DNA of 24,922 bases from assembly GCA_002418595.1 (NCBI GenBank), contig DIEK01000119.1, positions 1-24,922 on the forward strand, given 5' to 3'. The notes under the pieces are model-generated. The model worked only from the letters and a program-made list of their open reading frames with translations. It was not told the DNA's origin and did not search any database. The position numbers and the translations under genes are program-made. Shown here one piece after another: positions 5,513-19,827 of the stretch (the first letter of the stretch is position 1; the number at the start of each line of letters is the position of its first letter). The stretch comes from Candidatus Omnitrophica bacterium UBA5776 (lineage in GTDB: Bacteria; Omnitrophota; Gorgyraeia; Gygaellales; Profunditerraquicolaceae).

Positions 5513-6385
5513 TTATAGCTCAAGCCGTTGGAAGCGCTCAACCAGAAGTTTGTCGAACGCTTCGGCCAATTCCCCGGGAAGCAATGACTCCGCAAGCCTT
5601 GAACGAAACAGTTCTTTCTTCCCCATGAATTTCTCAAATCTGATCTTCTCGGGGATGCCAAGATAGTCCGCCAAAAGATCGATATCTCCCCGTTTGATCC
5701 GGCCCTTTTTCCCCTGAATGGTCAAAGCGGATTCCTCGGCCTCCTCAGGAATCACAATCCTGGAACAGACCAGATCATAGGCAGGCGCCAGACGCGCCAG
5801 TCCTTCTTCGTTATAAATAACGGAGTAATTCTTTACATGCGCGTCGCCGTTACCGATGAGAAAGTTGAACACGACGCGTTCAAAGAACAACTGCGCATCA
5901 AGCCCCGGGACCTCGGCGACGGTCTTTAACTTCTTTCCGATCTCCTCAACAGAGCCGTTGTATTTATCCTGCTTCTCCAGTATCTGGGAAAAATCCTCCT
6001 GATGGATCTTCCGCCGCCCCTCCCGGTCAAAACGCTTGACCACATAGGCCAAGCTTTGGTCCTTTAAATGCACCAAACAATGCGCCGGCACGGAGATCCC
6101 GATATCATCGGCGATCGTCATGCAAAGCTCTTCATTCTCCGGCAGGTTCGCGAACGCCTGCACCTGCGGCTTAAGAATGTATTGTCCGCCCTCAGCGGTC
6201 ACTTTCAGATGCGGATCACCTGAGCGGTCAGCCAATTTCACGGAAAGTTTTGGCTGCACTCCGGAGATCGACATCTTCCCGACCATCTCCTGGGCCTTTA
6301 ACGACACCCCGGCCAACGTCAAGTCAATAAACGGCTCTTTATCGACACCGAAAACCTTTCGCCATGCTGTTCTTCCTTTGTTCAT
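5513..6385 (-). CDS. hipT: HipT-type serine/threonine kinase toxin (short HipA)
   Basis: The 290-residue HipA-fold kinase lacks the N-terminal subdomain of classical HipA (~440 residues); that part is encoded by the preceding separate gene. It has the Gly-rich loop SISGVQPK (39-46), the ATP-site segment YILKPQ, the catalytic loop GNGDAHVKN (178-186, Asp181 the expected base) and the metal-binding PAYDL (201-205, Asp204). The SIS tripeptide at 39-41 matches the loop whose two serines are autophosphorylated in the E. coli HipT toxin. Known HipA/HipT kinases phosphorylate aminoacyl-tRNA synthetases and halt translation; the target here is unknown. The ATG overlaps the hipS stop by 4 bp, indicating coupled translation. 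Confidence 0.9.
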   Translation of the reverse strand: MNKGRTAWRKVFGVDKEPFIDLTLAGVSLKAQEMVGKMSISGVQPKLSVKLADRSGDPHLKVTAEGGQYILKPQVQAFANLPENEELCMTIADDIGISVPAHCLVHLKDQSLAYVVKRFDREGRRKIHQEDFSQILEKQDKYNGSVEEIGKKLKTVAEVPGLDAQLFFERVVFNFLIGNGDAHVKNYSVIYNEEGLARLAPAYDLVCSRIVIPEEAEESALTIQGKKGRIKRGDIDLLADYLGIPEKIRFEKFMGKKELFRSRLAESLLPGELAEAFDKLLVERFQRLEL

Positions 6386-6714
6386 TTTGCACCGCTTTCC
6401 CGGACAGTAACGGCGCCGATCGTGCTCTCACCGGTCATAAGCAATATCCCGAATTCATCCGTGCGATCGATCTTCTTCGTTGCGCACACGATGTCCCGAT
6501 ACCATCCTTCTGAATTCAAACCGGCAAAGAAAGGAAAAAGTATTGTTGATTCAAAAGGCTCCTCCCGCAAAGGCAAAGAAAGAGAAACCGCCTTCCCGCT
6601 CTTGAGATACGCGGCATCATAAATGAACCTGTAGCCCGCATCCGTTTCCTCAAGAATCCCTACAAAACGGTCTTGATAAAAGACATCCGCTTTTCTTATA
6701 TTATTCCTTGCCAT
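6382..6714 (-). CDS. hipS: HipS-type antitoxin (HipA N-terminal subdomain as a separate protein)
   Basis: This 110-residue protein corresponds to subdomain 1 of HipA: ADVFYQDRFVGILEE (9-23), YRFIYDAAYLKSG (28-40), SLSLPLREEPFES, LPFF-like FPFFAGLNSEGW (60-71) and GILLMTGESTIGAV near the end. A frame could extend to 6750, but the ATG at 6714 with GAGG about 9 nt upstream gives the normal family N-terminus. It overlaps hipB by 14 bp and hipT by 4 bp. In the E. coli HipBST system HipS, not HipB, is the main inhibitor and inserts a Trp into the HipT active site; Trp71 in SEGW is a candidate equivalent, though that residue is common in the domain generally. Confidence 0.86.
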   Translation of the reverse strand: MARNNIRKADVFYQDRFVGILEETDAGYRFIYDAAYLKSGKAVSLSLPLREEPFESTILFPFFAGLNSEGWYRDIVCATKKIDRTDEFGILLMTGESTIGAVTVRESGAK

Positions 6715-6904
6715 TACGCACGACCTCAAGATGATGTCCCAGGAACTCAAGGACCTGATTGACCTTGTCCAAACGCACCGTGTTCTTCCCCTGCTCGAGC
6801 TCTCTCACGAAACGAAGCCCGACGCCGACCCGCCTCGCGAACTCAATCTGGTCGAGACCAGCCTTCTTCCGAAGTAGCTGTATTGTCTTTCCAATGCTTT
6901 TCAT
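6701..6904 (-). CDS. hipB: HipB-like XRE repressor (y4mF group)
   Basis: The 67-residue helix-turn-helix protein fits the y4mF-type HipB group: IGKTIQLLRKKAGLDQIEFA, then VGVGLRFVRELEQGK (27-41) containing the recognition helix, then TVRLDKVNQVLEFLG. It should dimerise and bind the ACCCT/AGGGT palindrome inside its own promoter at 7126-7143. It is shorter than E. coli HipB (88 residues), ending soon after the DNA-binding domain. The ATG at 6904 uses AGGA seven bases upstream, which directly abuts a 20-bp hairpin (see 6916-6935). Confidence 0.9.
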   Translation of the reverse strand: MKSIGKTIQLLRKKAGLDQIEFARRVGVGLRFVRELEQGKNTVRLDKVNQVLEFLGHHLEVVRNGKE

Positions 6905-14768: not shown

Positions 14769-14857
14769 TCCCGCCTCCGTTGGATATTAAATCCCTGCAA
14801 CTGCATATAATAAAAGATGACAGCGTCTATTGAATTATTACCTTTTAAAGGCTTTAT

Positions 14858-14884
14858 ATTATAATATTCGCGCGCGCTTGTCAA
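14858..14884 (-). promoter_or_regulatory. Predicted promoter of the pgk operon
   Basis: On minus, a perfect TTGACA (14884-14879) is followed 15 bp later by a perfect TATAAT (14863-14858); TAATAT two bases on would give a 17-bp spacer. The spacer contains an alternating GC run (GCGCGCGCG). It lies about 90 bp upstream of the pgk ATG. The rest of 14769-14977 holds no gene. Confidence 0.68.
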
Positions 14885-14941
14885 TCCCTTCTACAAAAAA
14901 AAGGTGGGGAGAGATATTTGAATGTAGATAAGTATAAATAA

Positions 14942-14964
14942 TTAAGTATTGTGTCCCCGGAATT
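14942..14964. repeat. 23-bp direct repeat, copy 1
   Basis: This 23-bp sequence (core AAGTATTGTGTCCCCGGAAT) recurs exactly at 19828-19850 in the same orientation. It lies just beyond the stop codon of the 1193-residue protein gene, next to a CCCGC/GCGGG inverted repeat (14965-14987) that includes that stop. It may be a REP-like unit or a recombination scar. Confidence 0.8.
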
Positions 14965-14977
14965 CCCGCTATTTCCT

Positions 14978-17900
14978 CTACTGCGGGACTATTTTATGCG
15001 CGGCGACTGCGTCGTAGGTTATTATTTTGGTATTCGAACATTCCGGATCAGAACATATCCCTCCCCGGCTGTATTTCACTTGTGAGATCTGTTTAGACTG
15101 GTCAAAAACCAACTCGACTCCCCCGGTTGTATCAACCGGCCCAACCACCATGCGCGGGCTGCTGCCCTTAAAAACAGTATATACCTTATCCACCAGATTC
15201 TCATACGTGTGGTCTCCGCCGCCTGCCGAACAACCGTCCACGACTATCACCCCACCGGCATTCAAGCTGTCCCCCACCGGCTGGAGCGTATCAATATTAT
15301 GGGTGCCTATACTGCTGCCGTCTTCACCCAGAGTCAAAGCGTACGAATTGGCATGCCCCATAATGATTATCTCATTGGCCTTCTGGGCATAACTGACCTG
15401 ACCGTCTTTTTCCGTCCTTCCGGTAGCGTCCGCCAGGGCCTGTTTGGCCTCCTCAATGTTCGAAACTTCATAATACAGCACCCGCCTGTCGTTGGCTATC
15501 AGAGGAGGAATAAAAGAACCGCCGAATGTAAAAGCTCCGTTCCAGTCATGCCTGGCCGCGATCAAAACCGTCAACTGTCTTCCGTCGGGTTTATTTTCCA
15601 GGCGGTTCATCAGCATATCCTTGCGTATGCTCGAATCGAATCTTTCCCACCTGATATCCTCCAATAATAACCCGGAAGCTTTTTCCAGTCCGTAGGTTGA
15701 AACCAATTCCTCGATCTTCGCGGCGCCGCCGATCTCCTTGACCGTATTAACAAGAACCGAAAAACTCGAATCTATTATGTGCGCTTCCCCGTCTATTATC
15801 CTGTCCTGAGTGAATGCCGCCTTAATCTTATCCCTTCCCAACAGTCCGCATACCCGGCTAAAATCACTGTACCCCAGCGCATTGACCTGCTTCAAGACTT
15901 CGGCAAAACGTTCGATATTCGTATTCAACACGTTCCCGGCATCATCCTTGCCCAAGATTTCGCAAAACTCCTTAAAATTATCCACACCCATGGTATTAAT
16001 ACTTTTCATCACGTCATTAAAAGGAGTGGTTATGCCCGCCTCTTCATCCGCTATCGTAAGAGAGAAATAATAATCCTTGTTGTATGCCGCGAAGACCTTT
16101 TCCGTACCAAACAGCTCAACCGCGGCCTTAAAAGGTTCCAGCCCGATCTGGTCGACGGTCTTCAGGAAATAGTTGTACTGCTCCATATTCGCGGACAGCG
16201 TGTTCACCGTATCCTGCCCGAGATCACAAACAATAGCATCGTATTTGTCACTGCCCATGGACTGCACGGTTCTATAAACTTCTATCACCGAATAATTGCC
16301 GCTCACCAGCGCGTTGGCCACCTTATCCTTGCCGAACATATCGGCTACGGGGGCAAGATCCGGAAGATCCGCATCCATCACACTGTACATTGAGTTGAAA
16401 AAGAACGACTCCTCGGCGCGGATATGCTCTCCCATGTCCTCCTGCCCGATAATATCAACCACATTCCTGAGATTCTCTAAAAATTTATCCGTACCCCACT
16501 CTTCATCGGCAACAAATATATACATGCTTAATACCGCCGGGTTCTGCTCCAGTAAAACCAGGGTATTGTCCTTGCCCAGGATATCCTCGAAATCATTCAT
16601 GAACCCGGAAAAAGCATCGACGCCCATGTCTCCGCATACCTGGGCCAGATACACTACGCCGCAGGGATCTTTTTCGAAAGAAGCCTGAATGGTATCAGCC
16701 CCGAACACATCGACCACGGCCTCATAATTCTCTTTGAACTTTTCTATATCATTGTCCTTTGCAAGCATCTGCAGAAAACACGCGCAGGATCGGGGATCCC
16801 CGGTCATCAAAGCAATCATCTTGTCCTTGCCCGCAAACGCGTTGATCTTTGCCAGGTTATCCTCTCCCAGAACCGCCACGCTCTTCAGCAACTCGGTAAA
16901 ATCCCCGTCTTCATGCGTAAAAGCCGCAGCCACCGCCTCTTTGCCATACGTATTGACAAGGGTATTCAGCATATCAAAGCCGTTGTCGGCCAGAAACTGC
17001 AGCGTGTTTTGAAAATCATAATGGCCGTTGGCAAACGCCTTTCCCACCGCCTCCCGGCCCATAACACCGGAAAGCTCGTTCACCTTTTCCCTGTACGCCT
17101 GTTCCCCTCCCATCGCATCCATCTGTTTAGAAAGCCAGATAAATCCCTCGCTCATGCCCAGCCCGGGGTACTTGTTATAATCGGCGCGGAGATTTTCCAT
17201 GCCGAATATATCCGCAAGCACCCAGACTTTTTCGAGCGCTCCCGCCCATTCATGGTAATATTCCACGGACGGCTTTTCGGTAGTCCGGCTGGCTTCCGTA
17301 TATGGATCACTCTCCACATATTGATGCATCACCATTTCTCTGGTCAGACCGCCGCCGCGCACATACAATGTTTTGGCCGAGGCATCGTATAATGAAATAA
17401 AATCCTCGAATTCCGTGCCCTTGACATCCGCGTAATCGACGCTTTTCACGGTTACGCTGTCCGAGGGCCAGATAAAATCATCCCCGGACAGGGCTTTCCA
17501 GGCGGCGGCCACCTCGCTAAAAATTCCCCCGGTATTCTCCATAACCGCGCCTTTATCCCGGTATTGCGCGAAAAAGCGGTCCTGTTTTTCCTGGGGATAA
17601 TTATTGTCGGACGCGGAAGACCACAAAGCATCCTTCCCGGAAACCGCATCCAGATACCGGGTATTTTCTCCCCGGGCCTGTTTATCCGCCGCAGACCAGT
17701 CTAAACCGGCACCTATAAGCTCCTGCTCAACCGCTCCGTGTATGACCGCGCTTACCGCGGCCTGGATACCCTCTGCGCCCGCAATATCTTTGCCCGAGAA
17801 GATCCCTGCGTTCACCAGCAAAACATCTGTTCCGTCCGCTGTCTGCGCACGCAAAGACTCGAATTTGCCGATATCAATCTTGGTCAAATCCTCGACGCTC

Positions 17901-18559
17901 ATTTGTCCGGGATCAACCAACCTGACCTCGTAATCCAGATCGTACGCTCCGGCAGGCAGATATTCTTTCGCTTCTTCCAGGGCATCAGTGAACAACTTCC
18001 CCGCCCCGGGTAAAATCTCATCCGGAGAGCCCGCGTTCGGCATAAGAACGGACGCATATAACTCATACTCCGTGCTTAAAGAACTGTACCCCAAAACCCC
18101 CTGTTCAGCCGAATATCCCGCCTCAAACCCGGCATTTTGCATGCCAGGGGAAATTACCCCGTTGCCCGCAGTCTGACCGATAGCGTTGAGCGTGTCCGAC
18201 GCAAGTGGAGATTCAACAACGGGAGCATCCTTTTCAACGGCAGAAATATCCGTACGCACTAATTTCATCTCGCTTATCGCGCTTTCAGAAAGGACATTAA
18301 ATTTAACGGCGTTCCGCGCATCTCCTTTGAAATCGGAAAGAAGCACGAAATAGGAATTAGACTGATAAAAATCCTCCAACGCCTTAACCGAACCTCTCCA
18401 GCCGCTATTGCCGCTGATCCCCGCAATCACTCCCTTCCTGGTACCCACCGCTGGAATTGCCGCTTCGCCAAAAGACTCCGCGCGCAGAACAGAAGGCAGG
18501 ATAAGACACACCGACAGAACAATCAGCACGAAAATGATCTTATTGCTTATTTGCCTCAT
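14978..18559 (-). CDS. Large secreted repeat protein with C-terminal caspase-like (clan CD) domain
   Basis: I do not recognise this 1193-residue protein as a named family. A Sec signal peptide covers residues 1-27 (hydrophobic IIFVLIVLSVCLILP, likely cleavage after LRA). Residues 30-480 are unassigned; they contain H274 in VIHGAVEQELIGAG and H412 in MHQYVESD, which might be degenerate metallopeptidase-like segments. From about 500 to 957 there are eleven helical repeats of roughly 37-52 residues, each opening with G-[KRQ]-[DE]-x-[VI], with a central F..LL..V..MG and a following F.....LG. The C-terminal part (995-1155) has strands LTVLIAA, EIIIMGHANS (His1069) and GVIVVDGCSAGG (Cys1110). That His-Gly/Cys layout is typical of caspase, gingipain and CHAT peptidases. 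AAGGG precedes the ATG. It appears monocistronic and extracytoplasmic. Confidence 0.78.
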   Translation of the reverse strand: MRQISNKIIFVLIVLSVCLILPSVLRAESFGEAAIPAVGTRKGVIAGISGNSGWRGSVKALEDFYQSNSYFVLLSDFKGDARNAVKFNVLSESAISEMKLVRTDISAVEKDAPVVESPLASDTLNAIGQTAGNGVISPGMQNAGFEAGYSAEQGVLGYSSLSTEYELYASVLMPNAGSPDEILPGAGKLFTDALEEAKEYLPAGAYDLDYEVRLVDPGQMSVEDLTKIDIGKFESLRAQTADGTDVLLVNAGIFSGKDIAGAEGIQAAVSAVIHGAVEQELIGAGLDWSAADKQARGENTRYLDAVSGKDALWSSASDNNYPQEKQDRFFAQYRDKGAVMENTGGIFSEVAAAWKALSGDDFIWPSDSVTVKSVDYADVKGTEFEDFISLYDASAKTLYVRGGGLTREMVMHQYVESDPYTEASRTTEKPSVEYYHEWAGALEKVWVLADIFGMENLRADYNKYPGLGMSEGFIWLSKQMDAMGGEQAYREKVNELSGVMGREAVGKAFANGHYDFQNTLQFLADNGFDMLNTLVNTYGKEAVAAAFTHEDGDFTELLKSVAVLGEDNLAKINAFAGKDKMIALMTGDPRSCACFLQMLAKDNDIEKFKENYEAVVDVFGADTIQASFEKDPCGVVYLAQVCGDMGVDAFSGFMNDFEDILGKDNTLVLLEQNPAVLSMYIFVADEEWGTDKFLENLRNVVDIIGQEDMGEHIRAEESFFFNSMYSVMDADLPDLAPVADMFGKDKVANALVSGNYSVIEVYRTVQSMGSDKYDAIVCDLGQDTVNTLSANMEQYNYFLKTVDQIGLEPFKAAVELFGTEKVFAAYNKDYYFSLTIADEEAGITTPFNDVMKSINTMGVDNFKEFCEILGKDDAGNVLNTNIERFAEVLKQVNALGYSDFSRVCGLLGRDKIKAAFTQDRIIDGEAHIIDSSFSVLVNTVKEIGGAAKIEELVSTYGLEKASGLLLEDIRWERFDSSIRKDMLMNRLENKPDGRQLTVLIAARHDWNGAFTFGGSFIPPLIANDRRVLYYEVSNIEEAKQALADATGRTEKDGQVSYAQKANEIIIMGHANSYALTLGEDGSSIGTHNIDTLQPVGDSLNAGGVIVVDGCSAGGGDHTYENLVDKVYTVFKGSSPRMVVGPVDTTGGVELVFDQSKQISQVKYSRGGICSDPECSNTKIITYDAVAAHKIVPQ

Positions 18560-18598
18560 GCGGGACCCTTTTCATCCTCCATTGAGATATAGAATGGT

Positions 18599-18641
18599 AA
18601 AAAAAGCCACGATCCAGTATTCGTAATACCGTGACCGTGGC
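18599..18641 (-). terminator. Terminator-like hairpin in the leader of the large secreted protein gene
   Basis: On minus, GCCACG (18641-18636) pairs with CGTGGC (18611-18606), with an inner GTATT/AATAC stem (18629-18625/18621-18617), followed by seven T. It ends 39 bp before the ATG. With no gene upstream on this strand for several kilobases, an attenuator in the gene's own leader is as likely as a plain terminator. Confidence 0.65.
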
Positions 18642-18696
18642 ATCCATTTGTTCGATAATGAGGAATTATCAAACAGTTATGATAACTCGCATTTAA

Positions 18697-18724
18697 AGTG
18701 TATCATATAATGATGTTATTACAA
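18697..18724 (-). promoter_or_regulatory. Weak promoter candidate for the large secreted protein gene
   Basis: TTGTAA (18724-18719) and TACACT (18702-18697), 16 bp apart on minus, each match four of six consensus positions. This would start RNA about 50 bp upstream of the hairpin at 18641. The neighbourhood is AT-rich, so chance matches are likely. Confidence 0.35.
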
Positions 18725-18743
18725 GACTAATAAACAGTCCTGC

Positions 18744-18757
18744 TGAAAGCGCTTTCA
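18744..18757. promoter_or_regulatory. LacI/CcpA-type operator palindrome
   Basis: TGAAAGCGCTTTCA is a perfect 14-bp palindrome matching the classical catabolite-responsive-element consensus and the general LacI-family pattern around a central CG. It lies 20 bp upstream of the candidate -35 box of the large secreted protein gene. The regulator is not in the window. Confidence 0.55.
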
Positions 18758-19036
18758 CGGGGCCAAATTGCGGGATCACACATTACAAACACATATGGCA
18801 GAGGATTTACATTTACCGGATCTACCTACAGAGGACGCTGCCTGGAAACACCTATAATATTTAGGGTTACAGAAATAATACTCCTTGAAGCCCTACCCGG
18901 ATTATTTTTATAACTCGCTGTTTTACATGTTGTTGGACACAGCTTCTGCATTACCACAGCGACTGCATTACATTTCTATATATCCATTACAACTATGATG
19001 ATTATAATACTTCCCTAAATTCAGACCACTGGTTAG
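18758..19036. other. Gene-free stretch between the large gene's control region and the IS
   Basis: No plausible frame, RNA gene or long inverted repeat was found here. Composition is AT-rich with no strong promoter. It ends in TTAG, directly against the left end of the insertion sequence. Confidence 0.5.
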
Positions 19037-19827
19037 CAGTTTGCCGAAAAAGTCCCCAAGGCATGGCATAATATTCTCGTCGTAGAAAAATCATTATACA
19101 GACGAGTAGAATAGAAGCCATGATGGGGATGACCAATAAACAAAGGCAGATGTTTCGTATGGTTCAGATAACCGATCTTGTGCCTGAGGAACATCCGTTG
19201 CGAAGAATTCGACCTTTGATAAATAGCGAGCGTATTCGTGAATTGTGCGAGCCGTTTTATTACGAGAATAACGGACGCCCGTCTATTCCCCCTGAGCAAT
19301 TGTTTCTTGCGCTTGTGGGAGGATATCTTCTGGGAGTCCGCTCCGACCGGAAATTGATTATGGAATTGCAATGCAACATGGCGTTTCGCTGGTTCGTAGG
19401 GCTGGATATCAATTCTCCCGTGTGGGATGCTTCCACATTTTCCAAGAATAGGGAGCATCGGTTTGATGAATCCGGGGTTTTGGAACAACTTTTTGACGAC
19501 ACGGTTAAACATGCGATAGCCGAAGGGCTGGTTTCGACGCATTGGAGCGTTGATGGGACGCTCGTCAGAGCAGATGCCGGTTATAAAAGTCTTGCGCCGA
19601 TTGAAGTATACCAGTCCGTAAACGAATACAAGAAGACGATTCGCGGGAAATCCGCATCGAAGAATGGTTCTGCTCAAGAAGATTCCGATTCCGGCAATCC
19701 GACGGTGACTTGGCAAGGGGGAAAACGGATTTTTAGGTTCCTCCGGTAATGATGTGTATGTTTTCTTACTTCTTTTTCTGTTCATGGTAAGAGATTCTTT
19801 CAAAACAATGGCTTTTTCAGCAGACTG
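19037..19827 (+). mobile_element. Internally deleted IS1182-like insertion sequence
   Basis: Terminal inverted repeats of 19 bp bound the element: CAGTTTGCCGAAAAAGTCC (19037-19055) and the complement of CAGTCTGCTGAAAAAGCCA (19809-19827), 15 of 19 positions identical. Flanks are TTAG on the left and TTAA on the right, which could be a decayed 4-bp target duplication or an extension of the repeats. At 791 bp it is about half the usual IS1182-family length, and the transposase inside is truncated, so it cannot move on its own. Intact relatives could still act on its ends. Confidence 0.82.
19120..19749 (+). pseudogene. Truncated IS1182-type transposase
   Basis: The 209-residue frame matches the N-terminal half of IS1182-like DDE transposases: the DUF772-type segment FYYENNGRPSIPPEQLFLAL (46-65), LMELQCN-like helix, FVGLD, then HWSVDGTLVRADAG (141-154) carrying the first catalytic Asp (D145). 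After TVTWQGGK the family normally continues into the DPDAR and second-acidic-residue region. Instead a few unrelated residues and a stop follow, and the last ~75 bp to the IS end look like the C-terminal tail in the +1 frame (ending FSADC at the terminal repeat). So an internal deletion with frameshift removed most of the catalytic core. Confidence 0.88.

What the first reader, a model, noticed from the sequence alone, without database searches (positions are those of the whole stretch)
14978..18559. Secreted 1193-residue protein pairing a helical-repeat solenoid with a caspase-like C-terminal domain
Seen: signal peptide, about eleven repeats opening G-[KRQ]-[DE]-x-[VI] between residues 500 and 957, and C-terminal GHANS and VVDGCSAGG motifs after hydrophobic strands. 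Known: clan CD peptidases place the catalytic His in an HG-type turn and the Cys after a D-x-C-type strand. Inferred: an extracytoplasmic protease or adaptor whose repeat array binds a partner. The His here is followed by Ala, not the usual Gly, so it could be an inactive or divergent member. The gene stands alone and carries its own regulatory region.
Basis: partly seen in the sequence, partly recalled or inferred. Interest (0 to 1): 0.82.

Follow-up and report, generated by a model that had tools for sequence, protein, structure and literature searches.

The report
Secreted caspase-fold protein with helical repeats
An uncultured Omnitrophota bacterium carries a gene for a large, probably exported protein whose tail folds like a caspase-type protease and keeps the active-site residues, joined to a chain of helical repeats; the same kind of tail recurs, unannotated, in giant proteins of this phylum.

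Summary
The 1193-aa ORF has one hydrophobic segment (signal peptide), 11 repeat units (residues 501-957) and a C-terminal domain with His1069 and Cys1110. The whole protein matches no Pfam family at E<=1. AlphaFold2 gives a confident core for the C-terminal domain, and the 50 PDB entries listed by the second-look aligner are all caspase-fold (clan CD/CHAT) proteins; plain Foldseek was indecisive. Asp1005, His1069 and Cys1110 are kept in 36 of 36 distinct near-full-length copies, this one included. The domain occurs in 25 of 384 Omnitrophota genomes, in 9 of them inside frames of 4,891-25,804 aa. Some relatives carry quite different repeats: HEAT, ankyrin, MgtE/FliG-like (4 of 22 scanned). The gene is accessory: a sister genome with about 93.5% identical flanks has another ORF in its place. 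Best reading: an exported clan CD cysteine peptidase of an undescribed family, aimed or regulated by its repeats, probably cutting after Arg/Lys. Activity is inferred, not shown.

The parts
14978..18559 (-). gene: probably exported protein of 1193 aa, N-terminal orphan region + helical repeats + clan CD domain
   Evidence: open frame; no Pfam match at E<=1 for the whole protein; the only protein found in 5.8 billion is its own 90% cluster, 8 member sequences on 9 contigs
18479..18559 (-). signal peptide, about residues 1-27
   Evidence: only hydrophobic 17-residue windows of the protein; the cleavage site is my reading
17120..18478 (-). N-terminal region, residues 28-480
   Evidence: 1 of 384 phylum genomes, the own one (query residues 27-470); residues 333-405 match a G004 ORF that also has the C-terminal domain
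15680..17071 (-). array of 11 units with starts 37-52 residues apart, residues 501-957, predicted all-alpha apart from short pieces
   Evidence: motif count against shuffles; unit profile; mostly helical but low-confidence model there, pLDDT mostly 50-70
15065..15592 (-). clan CD (caspase-fold) domain, about residues 990-1165
   Evidence: AlphaFold2, 106 of 233 residues at pLDDT 90 or more; structural matches; relatives
15545..15547 (-). Asp1005, invariant, in the loop after the first strand; candidate P1-specificity residue
   Evidence: 36 of 36; position by analogy with MALT1 Asp365 and RgpB Asp163 (PMC4357240, passages)
15353..15355 (-). His1069, candidate catalytic His (G-H-A)
   Evidence: 36 of 36; two residues after strand 1061-1067 in the model
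15230..15232 (-). Cys1110, candidate nucleophile (D-G-C-S-A-G-G)
   Evidence: 36 of 36; two residues after strand 1099-1108 in the model
14782..19813 (.). variable block: no counterpart in the sister genome G001, which has 1.37 kb with another ORF there
   Evidence: blastn of the window against G001:C12, junctions read
19120..19749 (+). short (209 aa) transposase gene with a DUF772 domain near the upstream edge of the variable block, probably truncated (typical length recalled)
   Evidence: PF05598 E 7.6e-24

Best explanation
The gene encodes an exported cysteine peptidase of clan CD belonging to a family without a Pfam model, carried on an accessory segment of an Omnitrophota genome. SHOWN by computation: the C-terminal ~175 residues are predicted with the caspase fold; Asp1005, His1069 and Cys1110 are invariant across the relatives found in bacteria and archaea; some relatives join the domain to repeat arrays of other kinds; it sits either at the end of 0.5-1.2 kaa proteins or inside giant reading frames. 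INFERRED: the protein leaves the cytoplasm by Sec; the helical array holds or senses a partner or substrate and positions or gates the peptidase, as the helical N-terminal halves of separase and TPR-CHAT do; Cys1110 attacks and His1069 activates it; the invariant Asp after strand 1 fills the S1 pocket, giving cleavage after Arg or Lys. Targets are probably surface or giant proteins of its own cell or of a neighbour.
Against: No assay exists. Plain Foldseek gave no PDB match at E<=0.001 and mixed flavodoxins and dehydrogenases with caspases; the clan CD picture comes from the second-look aligner, which can only re-rank Foldseek's own list. The window protein has Ala after the His where 32 of 36 copies have Gly. 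hhalign probabilities are low (9-12% for C14, under 5% for CHAT). By sequence the nearest solved structure is caspase-4 at E 0.11. The repeat model is low-confidence, and 18 of 22 relatives scanned showed no Pfam repeat over cut-off. The relatives were found with profiles that themselves hold the motif, so decayed copies are under-counted. No export or cleavage site was predicted by a dedicated program.
Confidence: 0.6

Rival explanations
1. Catalytically dead clan CD domain used as a binding or scaffold module in surface proteins; the repeats and the domain together form an adhesin.
For: His-Ala instead of His-Gly in this protein; giant Omnitrophota ORFs have been proposed to serve in adhesion (PMC10066038, passages); one decayed copy exists (L031).
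Against: Asp, His and Cys all kept in 36 of 36 copies although the 16 Omnitrophota rows of A2 share only 15-29% identity with this one, which a pure scaffold would not require; Ala follows the His at three places of the tree without loss of the others.
Confidence: 0.2
2. Self-processing module: the domain cuts its own long protein (or a neighbouring giant protein) after export, releasing or maturing the parts, as MARTX/TcdB-type peptidase domains do. This overlaps with the best explanation and differs in the target.
For: In 9 of 25 positive genomes the domain, or a piece of it, is inside frames of 4,891-25,804 aa; structural neighbours include Tce1, for which its authors name TcdB's cysteine protease domain as a top match (PMC13323088, passages).
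Against: In this protein and in five others (L023, L013, L020, L066, L028) the domain ends 2-14 residues before the stop, leaving little to release downstream; no cleavage site was looked for by a program.
Confidence: 0.25
3. Delivered effector: the protein is put into or onto a prey or host cell and its peptidase cleaves a target there. This too overlaps with the best explanation and differs in the target.
For: Second-best structure is the T6SS effector candidate Tce1 = PA0256, a DUF4347 protein, and sub-threshold DUF4347 matches recur (E 2.6e-4 to 0.029; 3 of 7 domains, 2 of 7 relatives); accessory location with another ORF in the sister genome; predatory or parasitic life is proposed for parts of the phylum (PMC10066038, passages).
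Against: Sec-type signal rather than a recognised delivery domain; no secretion-system gene among the 20 window proteins scanned besides this one and the transposase (two of those were spurious or unmatched, small ORFs not scanned); PADLOC finds nothing for the protein.
Confidence: 0.2

Closest known systems
Tce1 (PA0256, DUF4347 protein of Pseudomonas aeruginosa, PDB 9qpe)
   Different: 16.8 bits against the DUF4347 cut-off of 24.6; Tce1 is a 310-aa T6SS cargo, here a Sec-type signal and a repeat array
Separase (N-terminal helical repeats, C-terminal caspase-like domain)
   Same: overall plan: helical repeats then C-terminal caspase-like domain (PMC4852461, passages)
   Different: no Pfam match at E<=1 of any kind (that Pfam holds a separase model is recalled); probably exported here; no death-like domain seen; 6-13% identity in the listed structural alignments, none of them a separase
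TPR-CHAT / Csx29 and SAVED-CHAT
   Different: of 7 domains scanned only one relative matches the CHAT profile, at E 0.033 below cut-off; no CRISPR gene among the window proteins scanned; probably exported
Caspases/metacaspases (C14), gingipain (C25), clostripain (C11)
   Same: fold; His after one main strand, Cys after the next; candidate S1 residue after strand 1
   Different: none of the family profiles recognises the protein; C11 found in 0 of 97 phylum genomes
Giant ORFs of Omnitrophota (PMC10066038)
   Same: the domain lies inside frames of up to 25,804 aa in this phylum; repeat units match frames of G049 and G055
   Different: the passages read speak of adhesion domains, and 'peptidase' occurs 0 times in the main text; this gene is a stand-alone 1193-aa protein

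Membership tests
Clan CD peptidase fold | caspase-type alpha/beta core | tested here: met
Clan CD peptidase fold | catalytic His at the end of strand 3 and Cys at the end of strand 4 (caspase numbering) | tested here: met
   His1069 two residues after strand 1061-1067, Cys1110 two after strand 1099-1108; 36 of 36
Clan CD peptidase fold | His-Gly motif (recalled as usual in the clan, not strictly defining) | tested here: not met
   His-Ala in the window protein; His-Gly in 32 of 36 copies
Clan CD peptidase fold | His and Cys side chains within reach | not testable with these tools
   no model coordinates released
Clan CD peptidase | peptidase activity | not testable with these tools
   needs an assay
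C14 caspase/metacaspase (PF00656) | profile score over the curated cut-off | tested here: not met
   no match; hhalign with 4 C14 sequences E 0.0035 but probability 9%
CHAT (PF12770) | profile score over the curated cut-off | tested here: not met
   no match for the window protein; one relative at 14.1 bits against 24
DUF4347 (PF14252) | profile score over the curated cut-off | tested here: not met
   16.8 bits against 24.6; best relative 21.2; 0 of 145 phylum genomes, but the control rang nowhere
C25 gingipain / C11 clostripain | profile score over the curated cut-off | tested here: not met
   no match; hhalign with C25 does not reach the Cys
Separase-like plan | helical solenoid followed by C-terminal clan CD domain | tested here: inconclusive
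   order met; repeats supported by sequence, their solenoid fold only at low confidence
Sec-exported protein | signal peptide and no further membrane segment | tested here: inconclusive
   hydropathy only

The most novel reading that the evidence does not exclude
An undescribed family of exported, solenoid-guided clan CD peptidases with Arg/Lys specificity is the processing enzyme class of the giant surface proteins of Omnitrophota: built into many giants and supplied in trans by stand-alone members such as this one, it would cut and release parts of the cell coat during contact with other cells, an extracellular counterpart of the separase plan found in bacteria and archaea.
Probability: 0.2. 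Interest if true: 0.8.

Novelty: new variant of a known kind. Interest (0 to 1): 0.58.

Why it matters
Giant ORFs of Omnitrophota (one of 39,678 aa is described in PMC10066038, passages) have few assigned domains; here is a recognisable catalytic-type domain, with three invariant residues to mutate, that recurs in them and in a stand-alone protein small enough to express. Relatives in records named Micrarchaeota, Woesearchaeota, Bacteroidales and Anoxychlamydiales extend the plan of repeats plus clan CD domain, best known from separase and TPR-CHAT, though a repeat family was recognised in only some of them.

Tried and rejected
Whole-protein search of 5.8 billion proteins found only itself (only the 7994 candidates sharing most words were scored), a search with the C-terminal region only itself, and one with the 16-row alignment nothing at E<=1e-5. 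Viral contigs: 5 stretches matched the pattern, none encodes a relative. PADLOC: nothing for the window protein. Solved structures by sequence: caspase-4 at E 0.11, not significant. Rfam (at gathering scores) and tRNAs: nothing in the window. NCBIfam: only chance-level matches (SeqA, E 0.014, for the window protein). Relation of the repeats to those of a Micrarchaeota relative: only E 0.055, not claimed. No fold search was run for the repeat array, because its model is mostly at pLDDT 50-70. A metallopeptidase reading of residues near 400 was considered by eye and dropped: no HExxH. Absence of other families from the structural list is not taken as exclusion.

Rows dropped: A2 uses 16 of 17 domain copies, the decayed L031 left out; one of the 16 (L029) is a fragment without the His region. 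The 36-copy count leaves out 12 rows shorter than 140 residues (some of them duplicates), among them L031/L082 (Ser in place of Cys, no His), and its profile was built from A2 and A4, so many rows are in the model. In the profile comparison 4 of 5 C14 matches, 13 of 15 CHAT matches and 3 of 5 C25 matches were used. Pfam was run on 22 relatives or stretches of relatives (7, 8, 7), not on all 36. Counts of genomes include the own one.

Literature: no paper in the library holds both 'Omnitrophota' and 'caspase' (0 papers); six terms on ankyrin and CHAT effectors together gave 0. Papers PMC10066038, PMC4357240, PMC10028731, PMC4852461, PMC8262886 and PMC13323088 were seen as found passages only; others appeared only in listings.
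Full report
WHAT IS THERE. The finding's coordinates hold one uninterrupted frame of 1193 codons on the minus strand. It begins with the only strongly hydrophobic segment of the protein, so export by Sec is likely and a further membrane anchor is not seen. Residues 27-470 match only the own genome among 384 genomes drawn from the phylum; in an earlier search of 59 relatives residues 333-405 matched a protein of G004 that carries the same C-terminal domain. A profile of the units finds eight more in a paralogue on contig C37 of the same genome (E 2.4e-33) and three to four in long frames of G049 and G055 (E 7.1e-6 and 1.7e-4), while the best shuffled control is at E 1.1. The modelled array is almost all helical but mostly at pLDDT 50-70, as it had no alignment depth.

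WHOSE GENOME. The window's assembly has 1.4 Mb in 131 contigs. A genome of the same family (G010) has a contig of 106,617 bases that a scan of named genomes returned, with a 100% match, as JAPLLN010000049.1, Candidatus Omnitrophota.

CONSERVATION. A search of the order with seven copies found the domain in 14 of 128 genomes, a search of the phylum with 16 copies in 25 of 384, the own genome counted. A scan of one genome for each of 84,980 named species gave nine loci: three records named Omnitrophota, two named only 'bacterium', and one each named Woesearchaeota, Bacteroidales, Micrarchaeota and Anoxychlamydiales; the Micrarchaeota locus has five such genes in a row. Counting distinct copies of at least 140 residues, the window's own included, Asp, His and Cys are kept in 36 of 36; Gly follows the His in 32 and Ala in 4. 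On a FastTree tree the Ala copies lie at three places: this protein, a tandem pair in G349, and one copy in L080 (supports not examined). Twelve shorter rows were left out; among them one copy (L031/L082) has Ser for the Cys and no His. Because the searches used profiles that contain the motif, decayed copies are under-counted.

RELATION TO KNOWN FAMILIES. The window protein matches no Pfam family at E<=1 and its domain alone matches DUF4347 only below the cut-off (16.8 bits against 24.6; a relative reaches 21.2). The Pseudomonas protein PA0256 contains DUF4347 (PMC8262886, passage) and is Tce1 (PMC13323088, passages), the second-best structure here, so a weak sequence signal and a structural one point the same way. 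DUF4347 itself was found in 0 of 145 phylum genomes, but its control also found nothing. Profile-profile comparison with four Omnitrophota metacaspase-type sequences aligns His with His and Cys with Cys (E 0.0035, probability 9%); CHAT gives the same registers without significance (E 0.57); C25 does not reach the Cys. I therefore place it in clan CD by fold and residues, and in none of the described families.

ARCHITECTURE. In this protein and in L023, L013, L020, L066 and L028 the domain ends 2-14 residues before the stop. In 9 of the 25 positive phylum genomes it lies inside frames of 4,891-25,804 aa (stop-to-stop frames, not curated genes): in six of them (G123, G010, G122, G349, G096, G294) as a full-length copy, in G269 and G084 in pieces, in G013 as the decayed copy. 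Of 22 relatives or stretches scanned with Pfam, four show repeat families over cut-off: HEAT on both sides of the domain in G349 (E 1.1e-32) and before it in G216 (3.4e-16), ankyrin in the Anoxychlamydiales relative, MgtE_N with FliG_M in G004; 18 show none, one of these a C39 peptidase. The own paralogue, counted among the 18, has the window's repeat by its own profile. Giant ORFs of Omnitrophota have been described as having few annotated domains and as possibly adhesive (PMC10066038, passages).

GENOMIC SETTING. pgk and tpi stay together in 8 of 8 relative loci read, in three of them (G001, G003, G015) with the solute-binding-protein gene that follows here; in the window this begins a peptide-type ABC transporter set (SBP_bac_5, two BPD_transp_1, two ABC_tran). 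The finding's protein has no match in any of these 8 loci nor elsewhere in G001. In G001, of the same genus, both flanks are 93.4-93.6% identical to the window, and 5.0 kb (14782-19813) have no counterpart; 1.37 kb with another ORF of 296 aa lie there instead. A short DUF772 transposase gene lies near the far edge of the block. The gene is thus accessory.

HOW IT PROBABLY WORKS. Shown: predicted fold, invariant residues, repeats, recurrence. Inferred: Cys1110 and His1069 form the working pair; the invariant Asp1005, three residues after the first strand, lies in the region from which MALT1 Asp365, RgpB Asp163 and caspase Arg87 read the P1 residue (PMC4357240, passages), which predicts cutting after Arg or Lys; the helical array recruits or senses a partner, by analogy with separase (PMC4852461, passages) and Csx29 (PMC10028731, passages), where helical repeats govern the peptidase. 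An active exported peptidase of any target gets 0.6. The self-processing (0.25) and effector (0.2) readings are mostly special cases of it, so the figures do not add to one; a dead scaffold gets 0.2.

VERDICT. A real and unannotated branch of a known fold class with an unusual architecture; new variant of a known kind, interest 0.58, mainly because it gives the giant proteins of a barely known phylum a testable catalytic-type domain.

Noticed in passing
L012 (own contig C37) 6331-6773: Directly downstream of the paralogue with eight repeats and an intact GGHG/ESCSTG domain lies a second, broken copy of the domain (split frames, one stop).
   Followed up: partly
L014 residues 683-772; L012, start of the 911-aa frame: C39-type peptidase sequence in the same frame as the clan CD domain: Pfam Peptidase_C39 E 9.6e-11 in L014; a similar-looking stretch upstream in the own paralogue is not recognised by Pfam.
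   Followed up: partly
G025:C53, G015:C32, G005:C35, G001:C8: Second phosphoglycerate-kinase-like stretches lie inside longer frames (2505, 2031, 2400, 798 aa) in relatives: a glycolytic enzyme domain embedded in large ORFs.
   Followed up: no
L046 607-10638: Five tandem genes in a Micrarchaeota contig, each ending in this domain, with helical-looking repeats before it by eye.
   Followed up: partly
window 19120-19749 +: Short DUF772 transposase gene between the finding and tatD, inside the block that the sister genome lacks.
   Followed up: yes
L058 4361-5251 -: ORF that occupies the finding's place in G001; begins with a dockerin-like DMNGDGSLNASD stretch (recalled pattern), only a sub-threshold PUA match (E 8.1e-4).
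   Followed up: partly
G000:C83 12562-13266; G000:C71 28423-28827: The own genome also has a CHAT protein (704-aa frame, E 5.3e-21) and a borderline C14 match in a 2918-aa frame (E 1.1e-4).
   Followed up: no
window 5513-6385 -: HipA-like kinase gene (HipA_C, E 1.4e-48) with a small ORF just upstream at 6382-6750, possibly a toxin-antitoxin pair (the small ORF was not scanned).
   Followed up: no
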